From a virus, in the IMG/VR virus record IMGVR_UViG_3300028840_000358, positions 1 to 23,547 of that record: a DNA stretch of 23,547 nt. One strand, 5' to 3'. Position numbers and translations under genes: made by a program. The notes below the pieces were generated by a model. The model ran no database searches and was not told the origin of the DNA. It saw only the letters and a list, made by a program, of their open reading frames with translations. Below are positions 1 through 23,547 of the stretch, one piece after another. Every line of letters begins with the position of its first letter. The first letter of the stretch is position 1.

Positions 1-878
1 TTCGCCACGCTTTCAAAATTCCATACTATATCTTCATTATTGGACGCACCATTCACACCACCAAAAGTGAGAGCGTCTGCATCACAGAGGATTTTATTAG
101 CCGTTGCCCCTGCGAACATCAATATACCCGTAGCAAGATTGGAAGTGAGGTCTCCATCTTCCTCTATTGTCCAGACAAGGGTTGCAGATGCACCTCCGGT
201 ATTAGTGTAAAACTCAAGGTCTGTGGGCATCACACCATCAGCAGGTGTGCCATTGGCTATGCCCTGAATCCTCGCACCTTCAATCCAGCCGTCCGTATCA
301 TATCCCCTGAAAGAGATCGTACCAAGAACAGCATTGTCATCCACGGGCGTACCGTGGGAGGCTTCTGTGCCTTCCCCCTTTCCAAGGATAACTATAGGAG
401 TGGTCGCCTCCGTATCGTGATAGGCTGTAATACCTATGGCCGCATCAGACGCCTCATCTAAGACCTCAAGCTCGTAATCCGGTGTAGTGGTGGCTATACC
501 GACCTTACTTAGAAAATAGGCTATTCCGGTAGAGTCTATCCATGCCTGATCCACATCACCTACCTCAATCTGAAAAGTTTTCAGAGCGTGATAAGCGTTA
601 AGCCTGATAGTATCTCCGTCCGATGTAACCATGAACTCATTGTCCACGGTCTGACGAATAGTTATTCCTTCGTTGAGAACCAGCCTGCTGTTTACATATA
701 CCGTATCCTGATTCCACCCACGAAGGGTGTCGGCACGAAGGGTAATGGTAAAAAGCGAGTCAGAATAAATCTGAGCCATTCTTAATCGGGACTTCTTAAA
801 GCCTAACCCGAACTGCCCCTGCGCCAGAGCGGTTCCGGCAAACAGAAGCATGAGTCCTATAAGTAATTTCTTTTTCAT
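1..878 (-). CDS. Signal-peptide-bearing tail-fibre-like protein (C-terminus cut by window edge)
   Basis: The first 292 residues are visible; the gene continues past the left edge. Residues 1-19 form a typical Sec signal peptide: MKKK, a hydrophobic core, then ALA before Gln20. Residues 35-110 are beta-rich, followed by a motif near 127-140 (VGIATTTPDYELEVLD) that resembles the GIGTTSP...L.V motif of phage tail fibres and of bacterial surface proteins ending in a peptidase S74-type chaperone. Residues 140-292 continue as Gly/Thr/Asp-rich beta sequence (FYTNTGGASATLVWTIEEDG). The ATG at 878 has a GAGGTAA ribosome site overlapping the stop of the upstream gene. An in-frame ATG at 779 (MAQIYSDS) would remove the signal peptide but has only a weak ribosome site. 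Role inferred: receptor-binding fibre or a surface-exported adhesin. A secreted N-terminus is odd for a virion protein. Confidence 0.7.
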   Translation of the reverse strand, partial: MKKKLLIGLMLLFAGTALAQGQFGLGFKKSRLRMAQIYSDSLFTITLRADTLRGWNQDTVYVNSRLVLNEGITIRQTVDNEFMVTSDGDTIRLNAYHALKTFQIEVGDVDQAWIDSTGIAYFLSKVGIATTTPDYELEVLDEASDAAIGITAYHDTEATTPIVILGKGEGTEASHGTPVDDNAVLGTISFRGYDTDGWIEGARIQGIANGTPADGVMPTDLEFYTNTGGASATLVWTIEEDGDLTSNLATGILMFAGATANKILCDADALTFGGVNGASNNEDIVWNFESVA

Positions 879-881
879 GCG

Positions 882-1454
882 TTACCTCACTATCCACACA
901 GCGACGTAGATTTTAGTATCTGCCCCTGCGTTATCGTAGGTTTTTTGGTTGAAATGAATTGTAAATCCACCGGTTGCCCATAGTTCATTCGAGAGCGAAA
1001 CCCCGTAGGCTTCTCCGGCAGTCCAGTCGAGATAATCCACTCCGGCCTGTGCATAGACTCCGGGTGTGTCAAAGACCAGATAGGTAAGGTCTTCAGACTC
1101 ATACCACGCTTCCTTTTCATAGAAATACCCGTAAGGTTTGATCCATGCGTACAGAGAGTCGCTTTCTTCCGTGTTGTGAACCTCTGGAAGAATCTGGATG
1201 TACACATCACCGGTTGCGAGAACCTGCTGTCTCTGGTAAGCTGGTGAGGCAGTGGTCAGGGCTACGGTGTCGATAGTGACCTGATCCCACCTGGTTGTAG
1301 GAAAGGCCACGTAGACTACCTTCTCGGTAGCAGAATCCATTGTTACACTTGTAAATTGCGGTCTGATGGATTTAAACGTAATCCGTTCACCCTCTGCTTG
1401 GGCGAACAGAGAACCTGCCAGCATGAGAATTGCGATTGTTAAAAACTTTTTCAT
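882..1454 (-). CDS. Hypothetical secreted protein in the distal tail region
   Basis: This 190-residue protein is not recognised as a named family. Residues 1-18 are a clear Sec signal peptide (MKKFLTIAILMLAGSLFA, cleavage after Ala18 or Ala20). The mature part is predicted beta-rich, with many Thr, Val, Tyr and Trp residues and two acidic aromatic stretches (YFYEKEAWYESEDLTYLVFD). There is no lipobox Cys and no second membrane segment, so export to the periplasm or outside is expected. The ATG at 1454 has an AGGAGA site overlapping the TAG stop of the preceding gene, and its own stop lies 3 bases before the next start, so it belongs to the operon. It could be a fibre partner, a fibre chaperone or a surface protein that changes the infected host. 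The function is unknown. Confidence 0.75.
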   Translation of the reverse strand: MKKFLTIAILMLAGSLFAQAEGERITFKSIRPQFTSVTMDSATEKVVYVAFPTTRWDQVTIDTVALTTASPAYQRQQVLATGDVYIQILPEVHNTEESDSLYAWIKPYGYFYEKEAWYESEDLTYLVFDTPGVYAQAGVDYLDWTAGEAYGVSLSNELWATGGFTIHFNQKTYDNAGADTKIYVAVWIVR

Positions 1455-1463
1455 TGTGTTCTC

Positions 1464-1889
1464 CTAACTTTTCGTGAACGCAAAGGGATATTGAGAAACA
1501 GCAACTTTCGGAGGCGGTGATATTGCATCGGACGCTTCCGTAAGTTTTTCCAGAAAATCCCTATCCCAAAATTCTTTAGTTTGAAGGAACTTCGGTTCCC
1601 CCGTTTTATCAAATTGATCCTCGGCAAGTCTGGCCTTTACAAAAGCCACAACCGCCTGTGCTTCCGAGTCACGGCAATTCAGATAACTCGATGGAGTCGG
1701 AGAGGTGTTGTCGTCGAATCCAGACGAATCGACAAAGACCTTATCTCCGGTTGTGTATTCTATCTTCAGCCCGTCGGTCACATCCAGAGTGGGTTGCACG
1801 AGGTCTCCATCCGCATCAAGCTCGTAAAGCTCCAGGATGCTGCCCTTAACTCTCGCTGCCCAGGCTTTTGTTTTTAAATTGTCACTCAA
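1464..1889 (-). CDS. Hypothetical phage protein, TTG start
   Basis: The 141-residue acidic protein has no recognised family. The first ~50 residues look like beta strands (AARVKGSILELYELDADGD). The second half looks helical (SEAQAVVAFVKARLAEDQ and FLEKLTEASDAI), with a short Pro-rich stretch SPPPK near the end. The start is TTG at 1889, overlapping the TGA stop of the upstream gene as TTGA. A strong GAGGAGGAAGG ribosome site lies just ahead and no in-frame ATG is nearby, so TTG with coupled translation is well supported. Its place between an adaptor-like gene and the exported tail proteins suggests a small tail or neck component. That is inference from position only. Confidence 0.7.
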   Translation of the reverse strand: MSDNLKTKAWAARVKGSILELYELDADGDLVQPTLDVTDGLKIEYTTGDKVFVDSSGFDDNTSPTPSSYLNCRDSEAQAVVAFVKARLAEDQFDKTGEPKFLQTKEFWDRDFLEKLTEASDAISPPPKVAVSQYPFAFTKS

Positions 1890-2557
1890 TTGCCTTCCTC
1901 CTCGTCATACCATGAATTTGTAAATTTCCCGATAGCCCTTCGTGCTCTCTTGTATTCGTTCAATCCGACTTCCATGAGACTGAAGTTGTCAAATTCTGCC
2001 GAACCAGCAGATGCTGTTCCTACTATTTTGAGTTCACTGGTTTCCGGTGCTTCAAATTCCATTACGTTGGACGTGCCGTCCGCAAAGTCTCCGAGTTTGT
2101 TGCTTGAGTCCACAGTCTGAAGCTCAAAGGTTCCGCTTTTTAAATCACAGTCATATGTAAATCTGTAGCGATGATAAATAGTAATGATGTCGTCTACGTC
2201 GAGATAACAACTCTGGTCTGCGGCATCGTTCGCTACATCCAGGTCCGTGGTGTCATCAAAAGAAGACATATCCGTATTCGTCCAGTCCGTAGACCCGCCC
2301 GTGAAGGTTCGGTTTATAGCAGTGGTGATGAGTTCGGTTTCGTTGGAAGCATAAAGCACTGAAATCTTGATAATGTTCAGGGCTTCATCCGGTAAGTCGT
2401 AATGAACCTTGTCGTCTATGATGTTATATTTCTTTACTTTAGAAGTCGTGTATCCGAGTGTTGCCATCTTGTGAAAAGCATCCCTGACGAAAGCTGTAAC
2501 CACACCTTCGTCCTGAGACTTGACACGCTCCATTAATTCATCTAATGTCATTGACAT
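1886..2557 (-). CDS. Adaptor-like structural protein with an inserted carbohydrate-binding-like domain
   Basis: This protein has 223 residues. Residues 1-75 have a helix then strand pattern (LDELMERVKSQDEGVV, then VKKYNIIDDKVHYDLPDEALNIIKISVLY) like small phage adaptor or connector proteins. The last ~25 residues return to a charged helix (EYKRARRAIGKF). Between them, about residues 85-197 look like a jelly-roll of the CBM 4/9 type: a TDW entry motif, alternating strands YRFTYDCDLKSGTFELQTV, and a closing AEFDNFSLMEV. Its only two Cys (117, 137) lie in this insert. The ATG at 2557 follows GAGGTAATCC, which overlaps the upstream stop. The next gene overlaps its stop by 4 bases. The role is inferred as a head-tail junction or tail-surface protein. 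The family name is uncertain; the domain insertion is a pattern-based call. Confidence 0.6.
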   Translation of the reverse strand: MSMTLDELMERVKSQDEGVVTAFVRDAFHKMATLGYTTSKVKKYNIIDDKVHYDLPDEALNIIKISVLYASNETELITTAINRTFTGGSTDWTNTDMSSFDDTTDLDVANDAADQSCYLDVDDIITIYHRYRFTYDCDLKSGTFELQTVDSSNKLGDFADGTSNVMEFEAPETSELKIVGTASAGSAEFDNFSLMEVGLNEYKRARRAIGKFTNSWYDEEEGN

Positions 2558-2560
2558 GGA

Positions 2561-5500
2561 TTACCTCAAGAATGGGTTTTTGTGAGGCTTGTTTTTTGTC
2601 TTTACTTCTTTTAAACTTTTATTAAAATCATAAGTAATTGATTCTCGTTTTTTCCCGTCTTCTTCTCCGAGTTGCCATTTACTCAAAAAGAGTCTCATGG
2701 GATTTCCAGTTTCACCCGTAAGTAAATCGTATGCGCCTTCGCCAGTAATTAAAATTTGGGGGGTGGGTAAACCAAATAAATAACCAGCAGCTTTTGTCCC
2801 GTGCTTTAACTTCTTGCCGAAACTCTTTGATCGCCCAAATGCCACGAGTGCTTCGGGAAATGCTTCTGCCGGTGTTGCTGAATATGGATATTTATTTACT
2901 AATGACCCAACAATACTCCCCACTATTGGAAACAATGCGGAACCGTAACCTATTATTTCCTTTCCCACTGTCGCTGCTTTCTTACTAACCGGTTCTTTTT
3001 TTAATAGTTTACCGGAAACAACGCCAGCAAAAAGAGCTGGAACAACCGTAAGCCACATATAGGACACCATCGCATCGCTTTTGGAAATTTTGCCTTGCTT
3101 TAACATCCCATACGTTCTTGCTGATTCATTATAGGCGTTGGAAAAATGAGAATAGAACATTGTGAATAGTTTTTGAAATTCTGAGCCACGCATAATAGAT
3201 GGTAAGTCTTTAGGTGAGCCAGTAGGCTGAGTTCTTCTCACAATCATGTCGGCATACTCAACCATCGCTTTTTCATTCCCCTTGTATTTCTTACTTGCGC
3301 TGGCATAAGCCCCTGCCCATGTTGGAAGAGTTGCTGTTTTATCTACTGTACTAACGAGATGGAATAAAAATTTGTGCTTATCTAATGCGAATTTTCCCTT
3401 TTGTCCTAAATTTTTGTGTATAAGATCACGCAATTCCCTATCATAGTTTTCCCTGCGATATTTCATTTGTGGGCTTTTACTATATATAAATTCTTGTATT
3501 TTGGGTATTTCTTTGGGGTTTTGCAAAAAAGCAGTTATGCCCTCCGTAGCATCCTTAACTCCTAATCTATTAATGGTTTGTGAAAATGAACCAGCCTGTT
3601 TTAAAGATACTGAAACTTTCGCTCCAAGAGCTGCCATTGTTGAATTATGCCTTAGGCCAGCCGCAGCTCTTTCTAAAATATTTGTTGGGGTTTGGTATGG
3701 TGCTGCAACATGTCTTAACCATCCCCGTAACTCCAGATATTCAGCTTCTCCTTTTGCACTCTTAATAGCAGTTCGCATTTTGGGTGTAGTTAAAATTCTC
3801 TGCACATCCCGCACGGGAATGGCATGGGTAATAAAATGATCTGTTTTGTCAATATGATCCGTAAAGACTTTAAAGAAATCAAGACTTATTGGGTCAGTTC
3901 CACCCTTTCTTGTGATTGTAAATCCACGGCTTACATAGGCTTTACGAATTATATTTTTAAATAAATCCCGTTCACGTTCCCTAATTAACTGTTGATCCGA
4001 AAAATCTCTATCCGTATAGATAGGCCAATAATTTTCAACTGCTTTTGGGGTTGTACCAAGAAGTTTTTTACCGACACGGGCAATGCCTTTCCACTGGCTC
4101 TGCACTATCCCCATCATTCCATTTACAAATTTCCTCTCTGTTGAAGTTAGATTATCAACGATATTATCAATTTTTTCTTCGCTCCACCCCTGTCCTACAC
4201 GTAATCTATATCTATTATCTGGGTTTAAACTATTGGCATAAACTGCCATTTGTTCTGTTTTGGTAAGCGCACTTCCGTCTATAACATCCTGTTCTTCATG
4301 TGCCGCTCTGAAGTCTATTTTACTTTTATCCATCGCTTCTTGAATGGTGTTATATATTTTGTGACTTCTTAAAAGCTCTCTGTCTTCAGCCTTTTTAATT
4401 GGATAGAATGTTTCGTACCAAACAGAACCACATTCTCTATACCCATCAAGACCCTCTATAATAGCTTCTGGTTTTTTAAGCATGCCAAAAACTTTATCCA
4501 TTGTTCCCGTTATTTTCTCTTTCTTTTTGCCAAGAAATCCCTTGCTACGTCTTTCTGATGGGGTTAGGTATTTGTCCGAGAACGGAACTTTTGGCTTCGG
4601 CGTATTCTTTATAATTTCTTTGGCAAGAAAATCTGTGATCTTTTGGAGTTCTCTGACTTCTTGCCTGACAATTAGTTTTTGTTTATATTTGCCAAGGTGA
4701 ACGAGTATCTTCGCCTTATCGTGAACTTCGCCAAGTTCCTCAATAGTCATATCGTTAAGGGGTTTCTTAAAAGTCGTAGTGAGGATTTCTTTAGGGATAT
4801 AAAAGAACTCGCCCATCTCTTTTCGTTCAAGATACTTTTTACGTTCTTCTCTTTCGTGAAGAACTTTCTTGCTTCGTTTTTTTAGATCATAAGGAGAAAG
4901 AAGTTCGTCTACTTTTTCTCTGTAATCTTCAGGAAGTTTGGTTTTCTTGAATACATTTATGGCTTTTACAAGACGTGTTACCTTGTCACGATTTCGAATT
5001 ATTTCTGATTTTTCTTTATACCCAAACCGATAGCCTTCTTGTGAGGCTTTCTGTTCTGCCCTGAGTTTAATTCTGAGATTGATGCGTTCCTGTTCGGTTT
5101 TAGCCTCTGCCATTTTTTGTTTATAAGCTTGAAGTTTCTCAGCACCAATTCCCTTGCCCTCTTTTTTCCCTGCCCGATAACCTTCTCGCGAAGCTGCTTG
5201 CTGGCGTTGGAAGAATCTGCGAAGTGCTTGTTTTTGATTAAGTTCTAAGTATTCACCAGTAGTGAGGTCAGTTGCTTTTTTAATGCGTGACTTAACCGTG
5301 CCTTTTTGTTTTAATGGATCATATTGCAATTTAATTGTAAGTCCGGGTGTGAGTATTCCACCGAGTGCTTCTGGTATTTTGTTTTTTATAGATTCTCCAA
5401 CCTCATCTGCGACATCCATTGGAATGTTATTTTTCTGAAGCTTACGGGAGGCAACTTCCTGAATTGCACTTGAACCGCCACCGAGTATTCCACCAACTAC

Positions 5501-6361
5501 GGCAGACATGGCGGCTTCCTGTACGATAGGCATGATACCTTCAAACTCTCTTGCGCCTGTAGTGGTCATAATAGTAGATTCGGAAATGGTTTGACTTGCT
5601 TCCTGAATCGCTTCAGAAGCCATGCGTGTGAGAGCACCCTTAAGTGGGGTGGAGTAAACTTTCAAAAACTGCTGTAAGCCCCAAGACTCTAAAATAGCCT
5701 CACCAATTCCAACAGAAGTCGAAACAGCACTTGCATCTTCAGGAGACATCCCGCCTTTCCTTGCTTCAGTGTAAGCTCTGCTTTTAGCCATGATACCAAA
5801 AGCCGCGCCTGCAACATTTGGGTTTTTGGTTGCATAGCTTAATCCGAGTGCCAACGCCAAAGAACCTGCTCCCTGTCCGAGAGTCTCTGCAAATCTTTTA
5901 TAAGCGGTTTCCTGCTCTGGATAGTTTTCTTTTATGTATGCTTGATTCTGGTCTATCCACTTCTTACCAAGCTGTGCGACTTTTTCATCTATCTCTGTTC
6001 CCTTTGCCAGCCACTTCATGAAGGGTTTCATGGTCAGGATAGGGTTAAGGGTAGTCTGAATGAGTGACGACGTATCTTCCGCACGTTCCCCTACTTCCAT
6101 CATGATACCGCCAGCTACCTGTGGGAGAGATGCCATGAACTTCTCCACGCCTGTAATAAGGGCGTTCACGCCTGTTTTTTCTCTTATGGGAGCGAACGGG
6201 TCTAAGCCTTCACCAAGCTGTTTGTACTTATCCGGGATTTCTTCCTGTTCTTCCGGTGCTTTTCCAATGTCAAAAGACGGGGGAACGACACGGGTGGAAG
6301 ACGGCTCTGCTGTAGCACCATATTTTTCGTGAAGAATTTTTAAGTCTTCCTCGTAACTCAT
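2561..6361 (-). CDS. Giant internal virion (ejection-type) protein, 1266 residues
   Basis: Residues 1-60 look disordered and Pro-rich. Residues 61-305 are helical with hydrophobic Gly/Ala-rich segments (about 160-192 and 276-305) that could insert into membrane. Residues 370-460 are a charged coil with two copies of an EGYRxGxKE-type motif. The part from about 600 to 1240 resembles the C-terminal region of large polyvalent-associated or internal virion proteins of short-tailed phages, including RRTQPTGSPKDLPS and FQKLFTMFYSHFSNAYNES near 1042-1080. Two hydrophobic stretches follow at 1102-1120 and 1134-1155. No lysozyme or transglycosylase motif was found. The start overlaps the upstream stop as ATGA, so translation is probably coupled. 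Inferred role: a protein packed inside the capsid and ejected to help DNA cross the envelope. The distal two-thirds is distinctly AT-rich compared with the N-terminal part. Confidence 0.7.
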   Translation of the reverse strand: MSYEEDLKILHEKYGATAEPSSTRVVPPSFDIGKAPEEQEEIPDKYKQLGEGLDPFAPIREKTGVNALITGVEKFMASLPQVAGGIMMEVGERAEDTSSLIQTTLNPILTMKPFMKWLAKGTEIDEKVAQLGKKWIDQNQAYIKENYPEQETAYKRFAETLGQGAGSLALALGLSYATKNPNVAGAAFGIMAKSRAYTEARKGGMSPEDASAVSTSVGIGEAILESWGLQQFLKVYSTPLKGALTRMASEAIQEASQTISESTIMTTTGAREFEGIMPIVQEAAMSAVVGGILGGGSSAIQEVASRKLQKNNIPMDVADEVGESIKNKIPEALGGILTPGLTIKLQYDPLKQKGTVKSRIKKATDLTTGEYLELNQKQALRRFFQRQQAASREGYRAGKKEGKGIGAEKLQAYKQKMAEAKTEQERINLRIKLRAEQKASQEGYRFGYKEKSEIIRNRDKVTRLVKAINVFKKTKLPEDYREKVDELLSPYDLKKRSKKVLHEREERKKYLERKEMGEFFYIPKEILTTTFKKPLNDMTIEELGEVHDKAKILVHLGKYKQKLIVRQEVRELQKITDFLAKEIIKNTPKPKVPFSDKYLTPSERRSKGFLGKKKEKITGTMDKVFGMLKKPEAIIEGLDGYRECGSVWYETFYPIKKAEDRELLRSHKIYNTIQEAMDKSKIDFRAAHEEQDVIDGSALTKTEQMAVYANSLNPDNRYRLRVGQGWSEEKIDNIVDNLTSTERKFVNGMMGIVQSQWKGIARVGKKLLGTTPKAVENYWPIYTDRDFSDQQLIRERERDLFKNIIRKAYVSRGFTITRKGGTDPISLDFFKVFTDHIDKTDHFITHAIPVRDVQRILTTPKMRTAIKSAKGEAEYLELRGWLRHVAAPYQTPTNILERAAAGLRHNSTMAALGAKVSVSLKQAGSFSQTINRLGVKDATEGITAFLQNPKEIPKIQEFIYSKSPQMKYRRENYDRELRDLIHKNLGQKGKFALDKHKFLFHLVSTVDKTATLPTWAGAYASASKKYKGNEKAMVEYADMIVRRTQPTGSPKDLPSIMRGSEFQKLFTMFYSHFSNAYNESARTYGMLKQGKISKSDAMVSYMWLTVVPALFAGVVSGKLLKKEPVSKKAATVGKEIIGYGSALFPIVGSIVGSLVNKYPYSATPAEAFPEALVAFGRSKSFGKKLKHGTKAAGYLFGLPTPQILITGEGAYDLLTGETGNPMRLFLSKWQLGEEDGKKRESITYDFNKSLKEVKTKNKPHKNPFLR

Positions 6362-8909: not shown

Positions 8910-11464
8910 TAGGTAAATTCCTTATGAATGGGTCTATTCTCTACAGCTATATCGTTTACCCTAACAAGATTGGATGTCCATGCCGCCTTAACCCTGATAC
9001 TCTGGACTGAAATTGGAGTAGAGAGTTCGATGTATGCCATATTCCATGTAGCTGCTACCGGAAGCTCTGTGGCTGGAATATAGGTGTTCACAAAAGACGT
9101 TCCACCGTCTAAGGCATAAGTCACCAGGTCATTCATGTTAATTTTGACGGATGCTTTATAGGTAATTGAGAACCCATAGATTCTTTTTACCTGGTGTGGA
9201 TTTCCAAAATCTTCATCTTTAAACGTCACCCACCCTGTTCCGGCTACCGGTGTTGGGTCCCATTTCTTTATGGTGGTCTGATTGCCAGAGTCGTATCTCC
9301 CAACGATAAGCTCATTTTCAAGTGGGGCAAAGTTTGTCATGTTATCACCGGAAGACTGAGAAAAAGAAGTATTATAGGTCCATGTTTTCGTAGAGAAGTC
9401 ATAGATGTAAGTCTTACCTGCTGTAGCATTAGCATCACACACTACGATTACCTGTTTCTCAAGAGGTTCATATCCAATAAGAACATCGGCATGAATATCA
9501 GAATCCCATGTAGAACCATCGAGAATCTTATTTCCCTGAGCATCTTCTATGAGGTTGTAAATCTTGTTCCCGTCGTAGTAATAACACCCGTTTTTGTTTA
9601 CCCACACGATCCCAATGTCTGTTTTGTAGGTTGCCGATGGGGTTTCCACACCCATGTATGGATTGGTAGATTCAAGGAACCAGCCCGTATCTTCACCCTG
9701 TGCCACATTGATGATATAGAGTGTCTCTGACTTAAAGGCTAAGAGCCTATCATTAAATCCTTGAAGGGCGGTGAACTCATCACCATCATTAATCCCTACA
9801 TCGAGATAAAATGTATTTGGGAATGAGTCAAAACAATTCACTGGTGAGTACATAATTCTATCCCCATGAATTACATCATCACCAGCCTCATTCGCGACCT
9901 TTACATTTGCTATCCATGTTCGTCTGTTCAGGGTTGCAGCACACCTAAACTTAGCTTCTAAACTAATTGTACTCTGAGAAATTCCCGTTAAATTTTCATA
10001 GGTAAGAGTCGTAGGGGGATCATACCAATAAATTGCAAGTCCGGCATAGAAATAAGCATCGGTTGGAGCATCACCGGAACCAGTCAGTGCCCCCCTGTAT
10101 GTCCACGGATGTTCGTCGGACATAAATTCTTCTGTGGGGTCAACCCTTACACCCTTTTCAAAGGAAATATCTAAAAATAATTTCCAGTCACCCCGCGGGC
10201 CACTTTCCCTGTAATATATTCTTGCACCCGTAAGTCGTTCATTGTACGACTTCGTTGCGTAAATCTGACCATAGATTTCTTTACTTGCCGTGGGTGTGAA
10301 AGTACCCTTCATGATATTTGGTAAAGATTCCTGAACACCATCATAAATAAATGTTTGAGCAAACTCAAGTTCATCTGCGGTCCATGTGCCGACACCAGCA
10401 CCACTCGTAAGTCCGAGTGTAAACCCTGCCCCCTCTGGGGGGCAAAGAACACCAGTACCAATCCATGTGTCAGCACCACCCAAATCATCGGTTGTAATCT
10501 CGTAATCAGGACCCGCCCCCTGAGCGGTTATTGCTCGTGCCTTTTCAGCTACTATATGAATTGCGACATATTTCTCTGTTCCATCTATGTCGTAATCTTC
10601 ATAATTCCCATCAGATTTTAGTATGGTAGCGGTAGAATCACCATCTCCATTAGCGAGTACACCACCTCCGACAATCCCATGAGTAGGGGCTGTTATCGCG
10701 GCATCTTTAGAATACCAACCATCCAAGACATCTTCTTTTGCATCACCACAAGTGAAGTGATTACCTTTAATATACCCGAACCACTTCCGCACATTACCGG
10801 TTCTAAATATTACATCACATACCCTCAAAGCCCCGTCTATGTAGTAAAAAACCGCCCTGCTTCCAGCGGCACTTCCACCAAGAGAAATCATTCCCCTGTG
10901 AACCACATCGTCGGTAACGGGCATAATGTCTATTGCCGCACTTGTGTCCCCATCTGCTAAAGCAATGTATTTTTCATTGGAGGTGTTGGTTGCTTCGGAA
11001 ACTTCTACGTAACTTCCAGTGATGTTATCTACGTAGGTATCTGTAGTATCATAGGTCGTGGCCGTGACAACTTCTATGGTTTTATATCCATTATAAGCTG
11101 TTGTGGTAAATCCGTAATGAAAAACCCGATCACCCGTGGCAAGTCCATGATTGTCTGAAGTGGTGTACCGGGCATCTCCCACACCACCAATTCCACCAGT
11201 ATTTGCTACACCCGTTATTGATCCATAAGACGGCATATCCCAATCAGCACCAAATGTGAAAAGTCCATAGTTTTTAATACCTGTCATCGAGGCGAATACT
11301 GTTGAGACTCCCGTAGGCGCAACAAGACTTCCGTCCGATTGAAGCACACCGTCTTTAACGAACTGCACATTAGAGACATCAGAAACTTCATTCGTCAGGT
11401 CTCGTGGGTCTTTGGCGTTGTTGAGACCGCCGTTGAAAGGAATGTTTTTAAAGTTTCGAGGCAT
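8909..11464 (-). CDS. Tail stabilisation / hub-type beta-rich protein
   Basis: This protein has 851 residues. Its N-terminus (NIPFNGGLNNAKDPRDLTNE, then VSNVQFVKDGVLQSDGS) matches the F.GGLN...P..L...E...N......G.L.. opening common in podovirus tail tubular or stabilisation proteins. The whole protein is beta-rich. From about residue 540 on, repeated strand motifs (GFNDRLLAFKSETLYIINVA; IGIVWVNKNGCYYYDGNKIY; GYEPLEKQVIVVCDAN; KTYIYDFSTKTWTY) look like propeller blades. The middle (about 230-400) may hold an additional beta-sandwich module. There is no signal peptide. The start is coupled to the upstream stop by TAATG. Inferred role: closes the portal channel or forms the tail knob. The class assignment is moderately sure; the exact homologue (P22 gp10-like or T7 gp12-like) is not. 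Confidence 0.65.
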   Translation of the reverse strand: MPRNFKNIPFNGGLNNAKDPRDLTNEVSDVSNVQFVKDGVLQSDGSLVAPTGVSTVFASMTGIKNYGLFTFGADWDMPSYGSITGVANTGGIGGVGDARYTTSDNHGLATGDRVFHYGFTTTAYNGYKTIEVVTATTYDTTDTYVDNITGSYVEVSEATNTSNEKYIALADGDTSAAIDIMPVTDDVVHRGMISLGGSAAGSRAVFYYIDGALRVCDVIFRTGNVRKWFGYIKGNHFTCGDAKEDVLDGWYSKDAAITAPTHGIVGGGVLANGDGDSTATILKSDGNYEDYDIDGTEKYVAIHIVAEKARAITAQGAGPDYEITTDDLGGADTWIGTGVLCPPEGAGFTLGLTSGAGVGTWTADELEFAQTFIYDGVQESLPNIMKGTFTPTASKEIYGQIYATKSYNERLTGARIYYRESGPRGDWKLFLDISFEKGVRVDPTEEFMSDEHPWTYRGALTGSGDAPTDAYFYAGLAIYWYDPPTTLTYENLTGISQSTISLEAKFRCAATLNRRTWIANVKVANEAGDDVIHGDRIMYSPVNCFDSFPNTFYLDVGINDGDEFTALQGFNDRLLAFKSETLYIINVAQGEDTGWFLESTNPYMGVETPSATYKTDIGIVWVNKNGCYYYDGNKIYNLIEDAQGNKILDGSTWDSDIHADVLIGYEPLEKQVIVVCDANATAGKTYIYDFSTKTWTYNTSFSQSSGDNMTNFAPLENELIVGRYDSGNQTTIKKWDPTPVAGTGWVTFKDEDFGNPHQVKRIYGFSITYKASVKINMNDLVTYALDGGTSFVNTYIPATELPVAATWNMAYIELSTPISVQSIRVKAAWTSNLVRVNDIAVENRPIHKEFT

Positions 11465-11973
11465 TAGTCTACCACTAAAAATTCAAGAGCAAGATGACCG
11501 GCTGAAGCATTTTCAGAGCCATCTAAATCTACAGTTCTAAGTACAATATCTGTGGGGTCAATACCGGCATTATCATCTTTAAAAACAAGGCATTCGCCAG
11601 GATCAAGAATGGAAATTGTTGTAGTCCCAGGATTCAGATAAACACCGAGGGCTTTATTTAATGGTTCACCAAGTACTGTAGCCGATGAATAGGTATGACC
11701 GGTGTTTTTAATAAACATAAAAGATGCGGTTATTTCAGCTCCGCCACCAGTAGATTGATTATACGTACTGTCATGAATTTCTTGATAATAAACAGAACCA
11801 TCCTTATATCCCTGTGCTGAATTGCCCCCGGCATAATCCGTCACTACCGCAACACCACTTCCGCCAAGCCTTTTCCCAACCTCACCAGAGATGACGTTTT
11901 TCGTATTACCTTGTTCGTCGGTCAATTCCTCTCTTGGCTCGACGTTTATTTTGTATCTGATTGAATCACTCAT
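11464..11973 (-). CDS. Small beta-rich virion protein, paralogue B of a tandem pair
   Basis: This 169-residue protein is clearly homologous to the gene just upstream (11975-12472). Both share VEPREELTDEQ, the VISGEVGK..GGSG block, a FxxIxNTGxTxSxATxLG segment, ILDxGECLVxKDDNAGI and a terminal DGSENASAGHLAxExLVVD. The sequence is beta-rich with no catalytic motif, signal peptide or membrane segment. The start lies one base after the upstream stop, and the end overlaps the next start by one base. Likely a structural protein on the tail or neck, but no family was recognised. By eye the pair is about 60 percent identical with a few small gaps. Confidence 0.7.
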   Translation of the reverse strand: MSDSIRYKINVEPREELTDEQGNTKNVISGEVGKRLGGSGVAVVTDYAGGNSAQGYKDGSVYYQEIHDSTYNQSTGGGAEITASFMFIKNTGHTYSSATVLGEPLNKALGVYLNPGTTTISILDPGECLVFKDDNAGIDPTDIVLRTVDLDGSENASAGHLALEFLVVD

Positions 11974-11974
11974 T

Positions 11975-12472
11975 TTAATCCACCACTAAATATTCCACTG
12001 CTAAATGACCGGCGGAGGCATTCTCAGACCCGTCTGTATCCACTGTTCTTACATGGATTCCCGTACAGACTATCCCTGCATTGTCATCTTTTAAGACAAG
12101 ACATTCACCAGCATCGAGAATAGAAATCATTGTAGTTCCTATCATCACCTTGACCGACTTTGCGAGAGCATCTCCAAGAGTGGTTGCGTCTGAAAAAGTG
12201 TAGCCTGTGTTTCTGATATAAACGAACGAAGCCGTAGCCTCAGATGAGATGTCCGTGGTGTCGTCAGAATCGATACACTCCAAATAATTGACCGTGGCGT
12301 TCAGGTATCCCTGGGCAGCAGCGGTTCCATCATACGCTGTCACTACCGCTGTTCCGCTTCCCCCTAAAGATTTGCCTACCTCACCGGAAATAACGGTATG
12401 GGTATTGGATTGTTCATCCGTCAGTTCTTCTCTTGGCTCCACACTTATTGAGTATTTGATTGTGTCGCTCAT
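11975..12472 (-). CDS. Small beta-rich virion protein, paralogue A of a tandem pair
   Basis: This 165-residue protein is the upstream member of a tandem duplication. It begins MSDTIKYSISVEPREELTDE and ends NASAGHLAVEYLVVD, the same framework as its neighbour. The differences concentrate in the middle (about residues 45-85), where loops vary in length. The ATG overlaps the stop of the 1275-residue gene as ATGA, with GGAGAAA ahead. Being coupled to the large appendage protein, it may bind or cap it, but this is inference from position. The fold appears all-beta. Confidence 0.7.
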   Translation of the reverse strand: MSDTIKYSISVEPREELTDEQSNTHTVISGEVGKSLGGSGTAVVTAYDGTAAAQGYLNATVNYLECIDSDDTTDISSEATASFVYIRNTGYTFSDATTLGDALAKSVKVMIGTTMISILDAGECLVLKDDNAGIVCTGIHVRTVDTDGSENASAGHLAVEYLVVD

Positions 12473-15400
12473 TGATTTTCTCCTTTAATCTCAAATGGTA
12501 CGAATCCCTGTTCGTACTGCTGTTTGAGTCTGTTATATTGATTGGCAAACCAATCGTAGTTTATCTGTCTCTTTTGTAGGAGAGCGTTAAACTGTCCGAT
12601 GTTCGCCTGAACTTCCGAACCGTATGCTCCGATTTCTGCGGAATATTTATTCAATAGCCTCTGGTTTACTTCCGAAACCTTCTGAAGCTCACCGAGATAC
12701 TTTGCCATGTTCGCCTGAAATTCTGTGTTCTCGTTCTTTACGTCCTCAGCGTGTTTGGCTATGGTCATCTGTGCGTCCGAGGTAAATAGTGAAAGGTCGT
12801 ACCCTGTTTCGGATTCGAACGTCTTTACGGCTTTCTCAATCAAGGTCGTCCAGTTTTTCAGTTCAGAGTCAAATTCCTGAGTGGCTTCTGCGAGTTCCTG
12901 AGTAAACACCTGAATCACACTCTGTGATTTGGTCTGAAATTCTGCCAAGAGATTACGTCTTTTCTCTGTCCACTCTGCGAGTTCAGCCTGCACGTCTTTC
13001 TGTAAGTACTCCTGAATCTCTGTGTTTACGTCAGTCTGGTATTTCTGTAAAGCACTCACATATTTCTGAACTTTGAGTCTATTTTCTTCGGTCTCTGAAG
13101 CGAGAAGATTGGCAGCTTCGGTCAGTTTCTCCTGAATGGTTGCCTGATATTCTACATTGGCATCGTTAAATTCCTGTGTGGCAACCTGAATGTCAGCCTG
13201 ATACTTGGCAATCTCGGTCTGTCTCTGAGCGATCCACTTGGCCTGTTTGCCGGAGAGTTGTTCAGCGTTAAATTTTTCAATTTCCGCTTTAGCCTGCGCC
13301 TGATACTTTTCAAGTTTTGAGCTATACTCATTAACTTCTTTATTAACCTGCGCTATATAAGAATCAACCTCTGATTTATGTTTGGCAAGAGTGGTGCTGT
13401 TGGATGCACTTTCCTCAGACAAAACGGCATTGGCCTCAGCTATTTCTTTTTCGAGTTCCAATTTATACTGAGTCGATTCCAGGTTAAACGTATTCAGGGC
13501 ATCTTCAACCTTTGCTTTGTATTCAGAGACTTTAGCAGGAACATTGGCAAGTCTTGCCTGAACCTCTGCCACATACCCCTGAGCAATCCCTATCTTGGAA
13601 GAAATCTCAGTAGCGTATCCCTGAGCAGATTTGAGGTATCCATCCACCACCACACCATAACCACCAACCTGTGCTACTCTTGCGGAAACCTCTTTGGTAT
13701 AAATTTCAGCCTCAAGAGCACTCGCTTTTGCTTCTGCTAAAAAGGCGTTTCCGGTGTTGATTCTGTTTTGGGTTGTACCCACAAAGGCATTGGCATATCC
13801 GAGCCTTGCTTTGACTTCTTCGGAATATCCCTGAGCGGCGGCGATATAGGCACTCACAACAGAAGTGTAGCTTTGAGCAACCTTAATATCCTGCTCTACT
13901 TCCTGGAGATAGGCAGAAGCCGTTCCGAGATAACCCTTGGCTGCTGCGGCATATCCCTGAGCCACACGGGAATATCCACCGCCTGAATCAATGTATCCCT
14001 TGGCAACTTCTATCTGTCCTCTGACCTGATTTACTCTTGAAGTGACTTCTTTCGCATAGGCATCCACCTCACCGGCATCGCCGGAAGCCTCGCCCAAATA
14101 TCCCTGTCCTGCCTGAACGTAACTTACTGCCAGTTCAGGGTCTTCAGCGGCAGTCTGAGTTACAGCGGAATCAAATTGAGTGTTCGCTAACGCAACGGCA
14201 GTATTGATCCGCCCACATGCGGTAGTAATGGCGGCCACGGCAGTGTCAATGTCCGCATCTATGAGTGTGGCGGCCTCTGCGATTTCAGCAGTTGCTTTAT
14301 CGACTTCTGCGTTATCCAGTTCGGTTTCAGCAGCCATCTTGTCAAGCTCTGCGTTTGCAAGACCTATCTCGGTATTGGCAGTCGCTACTCTGGTAGTGGC
14401 GGCTTCAAGACTCGTGACACCGCTTGCGGCATTGGTCACGGCAGAATCAACCTGAGTGTTAAGAAGGTCTAAGGCTGTGTCGATTTTAGCATCATCTACC
14501 TCTGCTTCAGCACCAACGGCTTCCAGAACCGCATTATCAAATTCTCCGTTTGCAAGAGCAACAGCCGTGTTAATTCTTCCGGCGGCAGTCACGATAGCGG
14601 CAAGGGCTGTATCTACCGAGGCATCTACCTGAATTTCAGCCTCATCAAGTTGTGTTGCTGCTGTATCTATTTGAGTCTTGATAAGTTCTTCAAGAGTGGT
14701 TACTTTTTTCAGAGATATGTTATCAATCCATACAACTTCGTTACCATCTTCGTCTGTACCGTCATGAGCATAGACTCTGGTACGTCCGCTCGATGTTCCG
14801 GTGGTTGTACAAATAAAAGTTTCCGAAACGGTTGCCCATGATTCAGAATCCAAATCAATTGAATGTTCTACATCTGTAGCGGTTGAGAGCACCTTTACTT
14901 TTGCATCTGTACAATTTGATACTTTATAGTCAAATGATATTTGATAAGTACAATTCTTTACAAGTAGATTTTCTCCTCCGAATACCAAGTGTATAAAAGG
15001 TCTATCATCTGAACCTGTATGAATCTTGCAGCAGAAATCCGATCCATTGTAGGTATTCACACCTGATCCAGCTTCGTTGTCTGTCTCCGCAGAGCAGTTA
15101 TTTTTTGACCAGTCTGTGTTTGTTTCTATGTCCGTGCCGTCCGCACCGGCTGCCTCGAAATCTCCGTTGTCATCGTCAAGTGAGCCAGATATAAGAAAGT
15201 TTTTTCCAACAGTATCCGTATTTAGATTGTTAGTTATTGCTGTCAACGCAGTTGTTATCTCTGTAGCATAGTTTGGATAAGCGTCTGCCCATGCCGTTCC
15301 GTCGATAGTCGTAGTGGGTGAGGTGTAGGTTGGCAACGCTTCCGTCATGGTTATTGCGCCGGTTGTAAAACCTTTAAGTGCAGGAGGTGACGGGGGACTA

Positions 15401-16332: not shown

Positions 16333-17079
16333 TTATTTGGAGAGGATTCCGTTGCGTAGCTCGTTATAAACCGACTTTGCGAGTTTACCCTGTTTCTTTC
16401 CTATGTTTTTCGATTCCTGCATAACGAGGTCTATCACATCCTGCTTGGTCTTCCACGGAAGGGCTGGAAGCGATCCCCCGTTCCATACCGATCTGCGCCC
16501 CATCAGGCCAAGCTCCTGCACCGTTGAGGCACATCCATCCCACCACGTTAACCTGAGTCCTATGAAACATTGTTTGTAAATCTCCCTGAGTTGTTCTCTC
16601 GTAAAGTCTTCCGCACTGTTCGTGACTATCATTTCGAACGGGAGTTCTTCCTGAAGCTCGTCTATCAGGTAGCGTCTGTAGATAGGCATGTCCGGTGCGT
16701 AAGCGTAAACCTTGTTTCCGAGTGTTTCCGATTTCCAGAAATCTATGTCGGTTGACGGAAGCACGATATACTCATGCTCTACTCCGCGAGATGTTAATTT
16801 CTTATCTATCCATTTTGAGATAGCGATGTGCCGTATTTCTTTCGGGCGCACACGATTTATGTTGTTTTCATCCAGAAGATCACTGCCTGCCCAAACCAGC
16901 GTAGCTTCTCCGGTATGACACACGATTCTGGTAGAGTCATAACCCGTGTAGTTTCCCCAAAAAAGCGTTGGGGCTTTGGGATCGTAGTCTTCTTCAGTGG
17001 CGAGTTTGAGATTATATATCTTGGCTACAGTTTCACCGAAAAACTTAACGTGAGGCGACATCACGAGTTGCTCAAGCAT
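16333..17079 (-). CDS. Compact GT-B-like glycosyltransferase
   Basis: This 248-residue protein is short for a GT-B enzyme but looks two-domained. The N-terminal half is alpha/beta (APTLFWGNYTGYDSTRIVCH; ATLVWAGSDLLDENNIN). A hinge-like strand NKVYAYAPD is near 122-130. The C-terminal half ends with GLRLTWWDGCASTVQELGLM near 174-193, resembling the GT-B donor-sugar site, where a Glu (here Glu189) typically contacts the nucleotide sugar. No signal peptide or membrane segment is present, so it should act in the cytoplasm. The ATG at 17079 sits inside the end of the preceding glycosyltransferase gene (8-base overlap) behind a near-ideal ribosome site. Substrate unknown; modification of virion proteins or of a host glycan are both possible. 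Confidence 0.65.
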   Translation of the reverse strand: MLEQLVMSPHVKFFGETVAKIYNLKLATEEDYDPKAPTLFWGNYTGYDSTRIVCHTGEATLVWAGSDLLDENNINRVRPKEIRHIAISKWIDKKLTSRGVEHEYIVLPSTDIDFWKSETLGNKVYAYAPDMPIYRRYLIDELQEELPFEMIVTNSAEDFTREQLREIYKQCFIGLRLTWWDGCASTVQELGLMGRRSVWNGGSLPALPWKTKQDVIDLVMQESKNIGKKQGKLAKSVYNELRNGILSK

Positions 17080-18094: not shown

Positions 18095-18110
18095 ATCTCC
18101 TCCATAGTTC

Positions 18111-18147
18111 GGGAAAGGGGTGAGCATCGAAACTCACCCCTGTTCCC
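18111..18147 (-). terminator. Strong intergenic hairpin after the capsid genes (terminator-like or RNA-processing)
   Basis: The arms 18111-18124 and 18133-18147 pair over 14 bp with one bulged base (142) and an 8-base loop. The stem is GC-rich (GGGGTGAG against CTCACCCC). It lies between the second decoration-like gene and the ribosome site of the first glycosyltransferase. No T-run follows on the minus strand, so it is not a classical intrinsic terminator. It may attenuate transcription, block 3' exonucleases or be cut by RNase III. The hairpin is seen directly; the role is inferred. Confidence 0.6.
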
Positions 18148-18583: not shown

Positions 18584-18598
18584 ATTAACCTCCAACTT

Positions 18599-19040: not shown

Positions 19041-20579
19041 TTATTTCCATACAGCCCATGCTTCAGGCAGAGCAGGCTCAACACCGAACTCAGTCTGAAT
19101 CAGGTCTACAGTTGCATCGGTTCCAGTGTTCTCGATTGTCTGAACACCCTTATAAATTGTGGTGTCTCTGTTTTTTCCGTTACCGATCAACGGACGATAT
19201 TTCACCTGTCCAAGAGGAACAGCAAGCATTTTGATGTTGGTTCCATCCAAATGCGGGTCTCTCAGGACATACATCGGGCCGTACAAAGTGCCGAACTGAA
19301 AAAGATTCGCTCCGGCCAAGTTACGTCCGCCGTTCTTGGCGAAATCATAGTAGTAATAGGTTGCCGTAGTCCCGATTACACCGGTTGTCAAGTTCTGAAG
19401 GGGATAACCCGCCAGTTTGTGAAGCCAGTTGTAATACAGGGTTGATACGACAAAGAGACACTTGTTGATTTGATTATACCGTGGGTCAAACAGGGTGGAA
19501 AAATCTTCAAGGAAGTTGTCCTGATTCTTACTTGTGGTAAGACCAAAGACGTTTCCATAGTTCAATGTCCACGAAGCGATTCCCTGGGTATGCTGTGGTC
19601 CGCCGGTTTCAAGGTAAAGATCAGAGAAATAAATCTCGTTACCGATGTCCCACTTGTGAAGCAACGTCTTCTCATCCCACAAACGATTGTACTCATTCTT
19701 TACGAGTTTGAGTTCAGTTGCCATTGTGGAGTTGTCCATCGAGAGAGATTGCTTCTGGATCATGGTTGCACCGTAACGGTTGTAATACGGCTGTGTTTCA
19801 TACGTATCGGGCAGGCCGGAGCCTTTCGCGTACGCATTACCAACCACATACGACCTTGCGGCTTCCATGATTGTTTTTGTTCCGCCCACGTCATGTCCAT
19901 GAGCCAGATCATAAGTAGAAGTCAGAAAGGTTCCACCCGGAGCAGAACAGTAATACTTGTTACTTGCAGAAGCAAGGGGCTTCACAACGATTCCAGCGAT
20001 GTAAGCATACTGGCCGGAAGTCTGAACGTCCATGATTCTGATAGTAAAGTAATCGTCTGCCACGAGATCACCGGTTGCTGATTTCATAGAAATTCTAACG
20101 ATCTGGTTTTCCATGAAAAAGGTGGGGAGTGTACCGGTATCACCAATGGTGATTGCGTTGGTGCTGTTACCGTACACATTTTGCTGATTGCCCGAAGACT
20201 TGTAATCCGCTCCCATCTTGAACGCAGCATAAGTTCCCTGCGTTTGGGGAGTGATTCCAACGACTCCGATTGCATCGTCATCCGTACTATAGTCGGTGAC
20301 GGGAGCATTTCCGGTTCCTGTCCAAGTCTTGCTACCTACGACATAGGCGTACCGCTTCCATAGGAACGGGCGTTCCTCGGTATATTTAAATATGGTTTCC
20401 GCGACAGGAGAAGTCCGTTTTTCAGAAAGAATCCTGAATAACGGGTCTGCCGGGATATTTAATTTGGAAAGACGGCTTGATCCATAGGCGTAACCACGCC
20501 TAATATCACCTATGCCATAGGAAGTCTCTTGGTCAGTCTGCTCAAGATCGGAAATGGTCAATGGGGTATCTGTAGCCAT
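19041..20579 (-). CDS. Major capsid protein
   Basis: This protein has 512 residues and lies directly after the scaffold gene, the usual place for the major capsid gene. It is mixed alpha/beta with no signal peptide or membrane segment. A central helix-rich block near 275-330 (QKQSLSMDNSTMATELKLVK then EYNRLWDEKTLLHKWDIGNE) followed by FSDLYLETGG resembles the layout of HK97-fold capsid proteins such as the SU10/N4 gp56-type families: a ...Y...QI....S....T...... segment, then a long helix. The last ~100 residues are beta-rich (FGTLYGPMYVLRDPHLDGTN). GGAGGCCAA precedes the ATG. The identification rests on position, size and general pattern, not on a specific motif. Confidence 0.75.
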   Translation of the reverse strand: MATDTPLTISDLEQTDQETSYGIGDIRRGYAYGSSRLSKLNIPADPLFRILSEKRTSPVAETIFKYTEERPFLWKRYAYVVGSKTWTGTGNAPVTDYSTDDDAIGVVGITPQTQGTYAAFKMGADYKSSGNQQNVYGNSTNAITIGDTGTLPTFFMENQIVRISMKSATGDLVADDYFTIRIMDVQTSGQYAYIAGIVVKPLASASNKYYCSAPGGTFLTSTYDLAHGHDVGGTKTIMEAARSYVVGNAYAKGSGLPDTYETQPYYNRYGATMIQKQSLSMDNSTMATELKLVKNEYNRLWDEKTLLHKWDIGNEIYFSDLYLETGGPQHTQGIASWTLNYGNVFGLTTSKNQDNFLEDFSTLFDPRYNQINKCLFVVSTLYYNWLHKLAGYPLQNLTTGVIGTTATYYYYDFAKNGGRNLAGANLFQFGTLYGPMYVLRDPHLDGTNIKMLAVPLGQVKYRPLIGNGKNRDTTIYKGVQTIENTGTDATVDLIQTEFGVEPALPEAWAVWK

Positions 20580-21591: not shown

Positions 21592-23547
21592 TTACTTTTT
21601 CTTTTTCGTTTCTACTTTCTGTGGTTTTTCTCTTTGTTTTGCTTTTTCTTCTATGAGTTTCATCGCTCCCGTATGCACCATAGCACGGGCGTTCATATCA
21701 GACTTCACCTTGGTTACAATCTTATCTATTTCAACATCTGCGTTTTTGACTTTTTCCTTAATGCCTGCATGTTCCAACTCTCTCGTGAAGGTCTCGATGG
21801 TTCCGTCCTTCTTCTTCAGTTCCGCTTTAAGTGCTTCGTTTTCCTGAGAAAGCTGAGAGTAAATGGACTTGCGCTTGATGACTTCTTCCTTGTTCTTCAC
21901 GTCTGTTTCTGCGAGAAACGCTATGTCATCTATGATTCCAGCTTCGAACCACTTTGTATATTCTTCTAACTTCGCCCACCTGTTCACCGGAAGGGTACTG
22001 CCCGGCTTAACCTTGATGTCGAAAATCGTAGAAGCATAGTCGTGATACCGCTCGACATCTCTCGACAGGTCGGGATAGATCGGGATATTGAGTTCGTACT
22101 TCTTCACATCTCCGGTATCCGGGTTGACAATGCGGAATACCTTGTAGGACTTGTAGAGAAACTGGGCATATTCCGTAAAGACTTTAAAAACTTGTTCAAG
22201 CGCAGGCTCAACCACATTTCCCATCCACGCCTTGATGTTTCTCGTTGAGGCTTCTTCTTCGGCAAGATAACCCCTGAAAGTCTCCTGACTGCTCTTGCCC
22301 CCGTGAAGAATCGCCTTGGCTCCCATGAGTTCTTCAATGATCTGCTCACCCTTCTCAGCAACACTGAAAAATGCCTGATTAAGCTGTGCCGGAAGAACTT
22401 CTTTTACGTCGTCCAGATTCCCAGTAAGAACGGTGATGATCCCACCAGGTGTAGTGATTTGTGTGGGAAAGTCTGTATCCGTTGCGCCCTTCTTGACTTT
22501 CCACCGGAGACTCGATCCAAGAGCGGCATTGTGAAGCATTAACTGATGCGCCTTGTTGACTTCCTGCTGAGTCCCTACGGCTTTCTGAACCACGCTCATG
22601 GGAAACGGTGTTCCGGTATAGATGCACGGAACGGGAATGATTGGATAATTCTCGCCGGGGAGTTCGTTCTTGTAGAGAAATGTGTCAGACCCGATAGAAG
22701 CAATTACCCTCACCTTGTCTCTGTAGAATGGAACAGCACTTACGATCTTGTCTTTAAAGGCTTTGCTTTTTCTTATTTTCTCGTATTCTTTTTCCGTAAC
22801 CGCAACAGTCTGTGTGGTAGTTATGCTGTTTATGGCATCGTTTGTGATTTTTGTTTCGTAGTCTTTGACTGCTCGTTTGGCTTCTTCTCTGAGTTTCTGA
22901 ATCTCGAAGTTCATTCTCTCTTTGGAAATAGTCTGTCGGTTAAAGGCATCTTCCAGACCGATAGCCTGGTCCTTTAACTCGGTTGCGAGGTTCTTCTCAA
23001 AGAGAGCGACTTCAGCAGACACACGCTGTTTAACCTGATCGATCTCGGCCTGAGATGGTTCCGTACGGGTCGTTACAGTGACGAACCTGACCTTGTATTT
23101 CTCGTATCTCTCGTAATAGTCGAGCCAGTCTGAATCCTGTCCGTTGATGCTGGTGGAAATATCCGCAGGCTGGATGCTTTCGGATTGGACGGTATCTCTG
23201 TCTGAATAGCCTGTGTTGTGTTCGTCGTTACCGGAAGCCCTTTTGATTTTCTCAGCGAACTGGGGAAGTTTGTTCATTAACTGTTTTCGGATAAAGTCTT
23301 TCTTTACTATGATAAAGGAAGCGTCCCGATAGAAAATGTCAGTCGAGGACGGGTCTACATATACATCCCACGTATCCAGACTCTTAAAGACTACCTCTCC
23401 ATTCCCCCTGTCGGCATTCGGGTCGATAGAGATAAACCAGTACCCGACACTTCTTGTGAGTGAATTTCTCAGAATCTGCCCATGAACGCTTTTCCCCATC
23501 GACAAATCCCAACAATGCTCCACAAGGGCGTTGTGGATAGAGGCAAG
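21592..23547 (-). CDS. Portal protein (N-terminus cut by window edge)
   Basis: The frame is open to the right edge with no stop, so the GTG at 23523 is only an internal codon; 651 residues are visible. The opening region (YWFISIDPNADRGNGEVVFK; DTWDVYVDP) and the central NYPIIPVPCIYTGTPFP, then VGTQQEVNKAHQLMLHNAAL, match portal proteins of short-tailed phages. A helix-rich stretch with GKSSQETFRGYLAEEEAST and EPALEQVFKVFTEYAQFLYK fits the stem and crown. About 100 residues of charged coiled coil (near 156-255 counted from 23523) are inserted between two strand segments. The C-terminal ~95 residues are another coiled coil ending in KKVETKKKK-type basic sequence. Role: dodecameric DNA gate, docking the terminase and the tail. 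It is followed by scaffold and capsid genes as expected. Confidence 0.85.
   Translation of the reverse strand, partial: LASIHNALVEHCWDLSMGKSVHGQILRNSLTRSVGYWFISIDPNADRGNGEVVFKSLDTWDVYVDPSSTDIFYRDASFIIVKKDFIRKQLMNKLPQFAEKIKRASGNDEHNTGYSDRDTVQSESIQPADISTSINGQDSDWLDYYERYEKYKVRFVTVTTRTEPSQAEIDQVKQRVSAEVALFEKNLATELKDQAIGLEDAFNRQTISKERMNFEIQKLREEAKRAVKDYETKITNDAINSITTTQTVAVTEKEYEKIRKSKAFKDKIVSAVPFYRDKVRVIASIGSDTFLYKNELPGENYPIIPVPCIYTGTPFPMSVVQKAVGTQQEVNKAHQLMLHNAALGSSLRWKVKKGATDTDFPTQITTPGGIITVLTGNLDDVKEVLPAQLNQAFFSVAEKGEQIIEELMGAKAILHGGKSSQETFRGYLAEEEASTRNIKAWMGNVVEPALEQVFKVFTEYAQFLYKSYKVFRIVNPDTGDVKKYELNIPIYPDLSRDVERYHDYASTIFDIKVKPGSTLPVNRWAKLEEYTKWFEAGIIDDIAFLAETDVKNKEEVIKRKSIYSQLSQENEALKAELKKKDGTIETFTRELEHAGIKEKVKNADVEIDKIVTKVKSDMNARAMVHTGAMKLIEEKAKQREKPQKVETKKKK

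What the first reader, a model, noticed from the sequence alone, without database searches (positions are those of the whole stretch)
1..1454. Two consecutive tail-end proteins carry Sec signal peptides
Both genes start with MKK plus a hydrophobic core and an AXA-like cleavage site (ALA|Q; LFA|Q or AQA|E), each backed by a good ribosome site. Virion fibres normally fold in the cytoplasm, so exported fibre-like proteins are unexpected. They may be surface adhesins or exclusion factors displayed on infected or lysogenic cells, fibres fitted onto particles outside the cytoplasm, or genes captured from a host surface-protein locus. The hydrophobic N-terminus could also serve as a virion anchor and never be cleaved.
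Basis: partly seen in the sequence, partly recalled or inferred. Interest (0 to 1): 0.6.

Follow-up and report, generated by a model that had tools for sequence, protein, structure and literature searches.

The report
Exported fibre-like proteins in phage operon
A phage of an unidentified Bacteroidota-like host carries, at the sequenced end of its particle-building gene cluster, two genes whose products look set to be exported out of the infected cell's cytoplasm; one resembles a tail fibre but has the layout of such hosts' own surface proteins, so it more likely alters the cell surface than forms part of the virus.

Summary
Both genes (882-1454 and 3-878, minus strand) start with textbook Sec signal peptides and good ribosome sites; no other of the 20 window genes does. 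Shuffled N-termini reach the scores in 2 and 7 of 20,000 trials. The phage is a P22/BPP-1-like podovirus fragment. Its relatives' S74 fibres have no signal peptide, and three of these lie near homologues of the two genes upstream of the pair. In Bacteroidota genomes the pattern is reversed: 32 of 40 sampled S74 proteins carry signal peptide plus Gln, and the best match to P0001's fibre part has one too. Similar phage-borne exported proteins exist (FCL-2 gp71, P. gingivalis phages), and an unrelated siphovirus group keeps a Q-rule signal peptide on the gene just after its capsid gene at 59-66% identity. Best reading: phage-encoded exported envelope or surface proteins made with the virion genes, perhaps blocking receptors. 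P0002 is not demonstrably fibre-like. Location, function, virion presence and the C-terminus of P0001 (cut by the contig edge) remain open.

The parts
3..878 (-). P0001: Sec signal peptide (residues 1-19) plus fibre-like protein with a VGIATTTP module, cut by the contig edge
822..878 (-). P0001 signal peptide MKKKLLIGLMLLFAGTALA, predicted cut before Gln20
   Evidence: Q-rule PMC5837995
24..503 (-). P0001 fibre module (about residues 126-285) similar to proteins of Bacteroidota genomes; cyanophage fibres match an overlapping stretch
882..1454 (-). P0002: Sec signal peptide plus 172-aa protein without known family
1401..1454 (-). P0002 signal peptide MKKFLTIAILMLAGSLFA, predicted cut before Gln19
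   Evidence: Q-rule PMC5837995
1464..1889 (-). conserved neighbour, homologues in the structural region of related phages (no signal peptide)
1886..2557 (-). neighbour with homologues in the structural region of related phages, perhaps a connector (no signal peptide)
2561..6361 (-). Bbp10-like large protein (PHROG 9880), marks the virion gene cluster
19041..20579 (-). protein in major-capsid position, used to find relatives
21592..23547 (-). P22-like portal protein (PF16510), cut by the contig edge

Best explanation
P0002 and P0001 are phage-encoded Sec/signal-peptidase-I substrates, arranged in one operon with the virion genes and so probably made with them. The signal peptides are cut before a glutamine by the host enzyme, leaving the proteins in the periplasm or on the surface of the infected cell. 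P0001 has the architecture of the S74-type exported proteins that Bacteroidota genomes encode themselves. It most likely acts on the envelope, for example by occupying or hiding the phage receptor so that progeny and competitors do not adsorb to the dying cell or its debris. Shown: gene structure, signal peptides, gene order, host-type architecture. Inferred: co-expression, cleavage, final location, function. The export step I hold at about 0.85; the envelope or receptor-blocking function at about 0.45.
For: Signal peptides are far beyond chance and unique to these two genes in the window. Both fit the Q-rule, as does a small SP gene in the sister contig G001 (MCP 100% identical; MKYAIIAVLLIFTLSFA|Q); Gln is 4% of window residues, whereas Q-values average 71% in Bacteroidetes (PMC5837995). 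Intergenic gaps are 9 and 3 bases, same strand, with GC (0.48) and codon use in the range of the other genes. Host precedent: S74 proteins in 56 of 198 Bacteroidota genomes, 32 of 40 sampled with SP plus Gln. P0001 residues 126-276 match at about 30% a 1598-aa protein of genome G270 that scores as SP plus Gln, and residues 114-267 match at 23% a 403-aa SP plus Gln protein of G100. Phage precedents: FCL-2 gp71, SP + QVGIATTTP, whose C-terminal part matches a tail-fibre PHROG; contig L185; Q-rule proteins of P. gingivalis phages (PMC10367356). T5 Llp, an exported exclusion protein, is encoded adjacent to and downstream of the receptor-binding gene (PMC9586334).
Against: No homologue of P0002's mature part, and no complete P0001 with its C-terminus, was found. 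No surface-anchoring or sorting signal is visible. In relative G018 a homologue of the 1464-1889 gene is followed by a small gene and an S74 fibre, the same order as here, which would fit P0001 being the virion fibre. Receptor blocking rests on analogy only.
Confidence: 0.5

Rival explanations
1. P0001 (perhaps with P0002) is the phage's own fibre, exported through Sec and fitted onto particles outside the cytoplasm, in the periplasm or after lysis.
For: Position: in relative G018 a homologue of the 1464-1889 gene is followed by a small gene and an S74 fibre, as here. PHROG 9942 tail-fibre match. An unrelated siphovirus group carries a conserved SP plus Gln protein directly after its capsid gene, where decoration genes often lie.
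Against: Related phages' S74 fibres have no signal peptide. The PHROG 9942 match covers profile positions 466-675 of 1178, so the N-terminal part of that profile is missing here and a signal peptide stands in its place. I know of no tailed phage that assembles fibres this way.
Confidence: 0.18
2. The hydrophobic N-termini are uncleaved anchors that hold the proteins in the inner membrane or virion.
For: Positively charged N-terminus followed by a hydrophobic core.
Against: Core of about 15 residues is short for a membrane helix; canonical cut followed by Gln in both, and the same pattern conserved in a parallel phage family.
Confidence: 0.08
3. P0001 is made in two forms, an exported one from 878 and a cytoplasmic virion one from the internal ATG at 779.
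For: An in-frame ATG exists at 779.
Against: No ribosome-site motif scores upstream of 779, while the start at 878 has GAGG.
Confidence: 0.06
4. The two genes are exported accessory (moron-like) proteins whose role is unrelated to the receptor, for instance adhesion, envelope repair or lysis support.
For: P. gingivalis and Flavobacterium phages carry exported Q-rule proteins of unknown role (FCL-2 gp71).
Against: Placement in line with the virion genes rather than in a separate accessory region.
Confidence: 0.18

Closest known systems
Exported S74-type ('VGIGTTTP') proteins of Bacteroidota genomes
   Same: Sec signal peptide with Gln after the cut, followed by a VGI(A/G)TTTP-type fibre module; about 23-30% identity over roughly 150 residues.
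   Different: P0001 lies in a phage virion gene cluster; its C-terminus, and so any S74 domain, is not in the window.
Flavobacterium phage FCL-2 gp71 and the 187-aa protein of contig L185
   Same: Phage-borne, signal peptide with Gln, then VGI(A/G)TTTP; gp71 also has a stretch matching a tail-fibre PHROG.
   Different: Small single proteins away from the annotated tail genes; P0001 is larger and sits with virion genes.
Q-rule signal-peptide proteins of Porphyromonas gingivalis phages (PMC10367356)
   Same: Phage genes predicted to use Sec/SPI under the Q-rule.
   Different: Described there as genes of unknown function; a link to fibre modules was not seen in the passages read.
Phage T5 Llp and the Cor family (superinfection-exclusion lipoproteins)
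   Same: Exported phage proteins; Llp is encoded next to the receptor-binding gene (PMC9586334).
   Different: Llp is a small lipoprotein; P0001 and P0002 have no lipobox. No sequence relation was tested directly.
S74 tail fibres of related phages (G012, G014, G018, G021)
   Same: Same virus group; in three of them the S74 gene lies near homologues of the 1464-1889 and 1886-2557 genes.
   Different: No signal peptide.

Membership tests
Sec/SPI substrate of the Q-rule type | Positive n-region, hydrophobic core, A-x-A type cut | tested here: met
Sec/SPI substrate of the Q-rule type | Gln immediately after the cut | tested here: met
   A19|Q20 in P0001 and A18|Q19 in P0002; for P0002 the scan itself scored AQA|E slightly higher
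Sec/SPI substrate of the Q-rule type | Cleavage and pyroglutamate formation in the cell | not testable with these tools
   needs mass spectrometry
Exported S74-type protein of Bacteroidota | Signal peptide plus VGI(A/G)TTTP fibre module | tested here: met
   P0001 only
Exported S74-type protein of Bacteroidota | C-terminal Peptidase_S74 chaperone domain | tested here: inconclusive
   no PF13884 match in the window, but the gene is cut by the contig edge
S74 tail fibre of tailed phages | Cytoplasmic protein without signal peptide | tested here: not met
S74 tail fibre of tailed phages | Present in virions | not testable with these tools
   needs virion proteomics
Llp/Cor superinfection-exclusion lipoproteins | Lipobox Cys at the cut | tested here: not met
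   residue after the cut is Gln in both

The most novel reading that the evidence does not exclude
Some phages of Q-rule bacteria route outer virion proteins (a fibre here, a protein encoded just after the capsid gene in the L003 group) through Sec and add them to particles outside the cytoplasm.
Probability: 0.13. Interest if true: 0.85.

Novelty: new variant of a known kind. Interest (0 to 1): 0.5.

Why it matters
Tailed-phage particles are built in the cytoplasm, so exported proteins encoded among virion genes must act elsewhere or be added in a way not yet described. The Q-rule fit, and a conserved signal peptide on the gene after the capsid gene in a second phage group, make this a testable pattern for phages of Bacteroidota-type hosts. 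If P0001 blocks receptors it would be an exclusion protein built from a fibre-type module rather than a lipoprotein.

Tried and rejected
Structure prediction of both mature proteins from single sequences gave pLDDT near 34 and was discarded, so no fold search was run. No relatives of P0001 by peptide patterns in viral or genome contigs. The P0002 hit in L002/L003 is essentially the signal peptide, which the search pattern itself selected. No contig extending the left edge was found. A 35-residue similarity of P0002 to peptidase-like exported proteins in Bacteroidota genomes was judged chance: one recurrent family, marginal after correction for the genomes searched, and P0002 is too short. P0002 versus the phage's own decoration-like protein: no similarity. 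Host-DNA contamination of the contig end was considered and rejected because of gene spacing, composition and codon use. Pfam, NCBIfam and PDB gave nothing useful for either protein. Several weak P0001 genome hits (L153-L159, L161) were not recovered on re-alignment or fall in proteins without a signal peptide and were not counted as homologues.

Full report
Context. The window is a whole 23.5-kb IMG/VR record, a fragment of a podovirus with a P22-like portal (PF16510) and a Bbp10-like protein (PHROG 9880; BPP-1 among the matches). All 20 called genes lie on the minus strand. A sister contig (L004/G001, capsid-position protein 100% identical) covers the other end of the phage but ends inside the 6358-7635 gene, so the two genes of the finding are seen in one record only.

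The observation. P0002 (882-1454) and P0001 (3-878) begin with signal peptides by a heuristic that finds no others in the window. The scores are reached by 2 and 7 of 20,000 own-composition shuffles, and no internal 45-mer of the window's proteins scores 8 or more. Starts are supported by AGGAG and GAGG ribosome sites; the internal ATG at 779 has none. The genes are 9 and 3 bases from their upstream neighbours, on the same strand, with GC and codon use in the range of the other genes.

The Q-rule. Bochtler et al. (PMC5837995) report that signal peptidase I cuts before Gln in about 71% of predicted substrates across Bacteroidetes, with most Chlorobi low and exceptions such as Ignavibacterium album (77%). 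P0001 (ALA|Q) fits, and so does P0002 if cut at LFA|Q; the scan itself put P0002's cut two residues later, at AQA|E. A 93-aa SP gene in the sister contig also fits (SFA|Q). Gln makes up 4% of residues in window proteins. The host is therefore probably Bacteroidota or a Q-rule relative. Most genes have Shine-Dalgarno sites (14 of 19, against 3 of 49 in Flavobacterium phage FCL-2 by the same caller); the caller partly uses those sites to choose starts, so this is suggestive only. One capsid relative lies in a Flavobacteriales MAG, weak evidence because it is a short binned contig.

Relatives of the phage. Among 805 called genes of 24 related sequences plus the unrelated contigs L002/L003 (some overlap each other), few score as signal peptides. 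Four related records (G012, G014, G018, G021) carry an S74 domain, in genes without a signal peptide. In G012, G014 and G018 that gene lies near homologues of the 1464-1889 and 1886-2557 genes; in G018 the order after the 1464-1889 homologue is small protein, then S74 fibre, as P0002 and P0001 follow it here. Sequence searches find no homologue of P0001 or P0002 in these contigs.

Host-type architecture. PF13884 occurs in 56 of 198 sampled Bacteroidota genomes. Of 40 such genes fetched from the higher-scoring hits, 32 score as signal peptide plus Gln; by eye four of the other eight start similarly. P0001 residues 126-276 align at about 30% with a 1598-aa protein of genome G270 that scores as a signal peptide followed by Gln, and residues 114-267 at 23% with a 403-aa SP plus Gln protein of G100. 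Two further G270 matches fall in a protein with an SP-like start that the scan did not score, and another in an open reading frame whose start is off its contig. In G100 the matching gene follows another SP gene. So P0001 looks like a phage-borne member of this host protein type; recent capture is not shown.

Parallels in phages. Flavobacterium phage FCL-2 gp71 is MKTIVITLLLSISTYS|QVGIATTTP... with a C-terminal stretch matching a tail-fibre PHROG; it was read by eye, not scored by the scan. A 103-kb contig carries a similar protein (L185). P. gingivalis phages carry Q-rule proteins of unknown function (PMC10367356). In a group of HK97-type siphoviruses (L003, L189, L190, L191) the gene right after the capsid gene keeps a signal peptide with Gln at 59-66% identity, its letters drifting while the pattern stays. 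That conservation supports a function for exported proteins encoded among virion genes.

Interpretation. Export is the firm part (about 0.85). For function, an envelope role such as receptor blocking is preferred by analogy with T5 Llp, encoded adjacent to and downstream of the receptor-binding gene (PMC9586334), but it is untested here, and Llp is a lipoprotein, which these are not. Exterior assembly of an exported fibre is the main rival and the most novel reading.

Limits. SignalP was not available; the heuristic missed some clear signal peptides in the host set. P0001 is cut by the contig edge. Structure prediction failed. Literature search covered open-licence papers only.

Noticed in passing
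window 16333-18127: Two consecutive genes after the decoration-like genes; the 17072 gene has weak glycosyltransferase matches, the 16333 gene had none.
   Followed up: no
window 18155-19030 and 11464-12472: Two pairs of tandem paralogues, about 72% and 64% identical.
   Followed up: no
window 12469-16296: 1275-aa protein with weak Pfam CBM_4_9 and OmpH-like matches below the curated cut-offs.
   Followed up: no
L003 8001-8528, L189, L190, L191: Unrelated HK97-type siphoviruses keep a Q-rule signal peptide on the gene directly after the capsid gene.
   Followed up: partly
window, all genes: Most starts have Shine-Dalgarno sites although the signal peptides follow the Bacteroidetes Q-rule, so the host may not be a typical Flavobacterium.
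   Followed up: partly
L183 7387-15927 (Bacteroidota genome G100): Three consecutive signal-peptide genes, the second matching P0001's fibre module, the third a 2099-aa protein.
   Followed up: no
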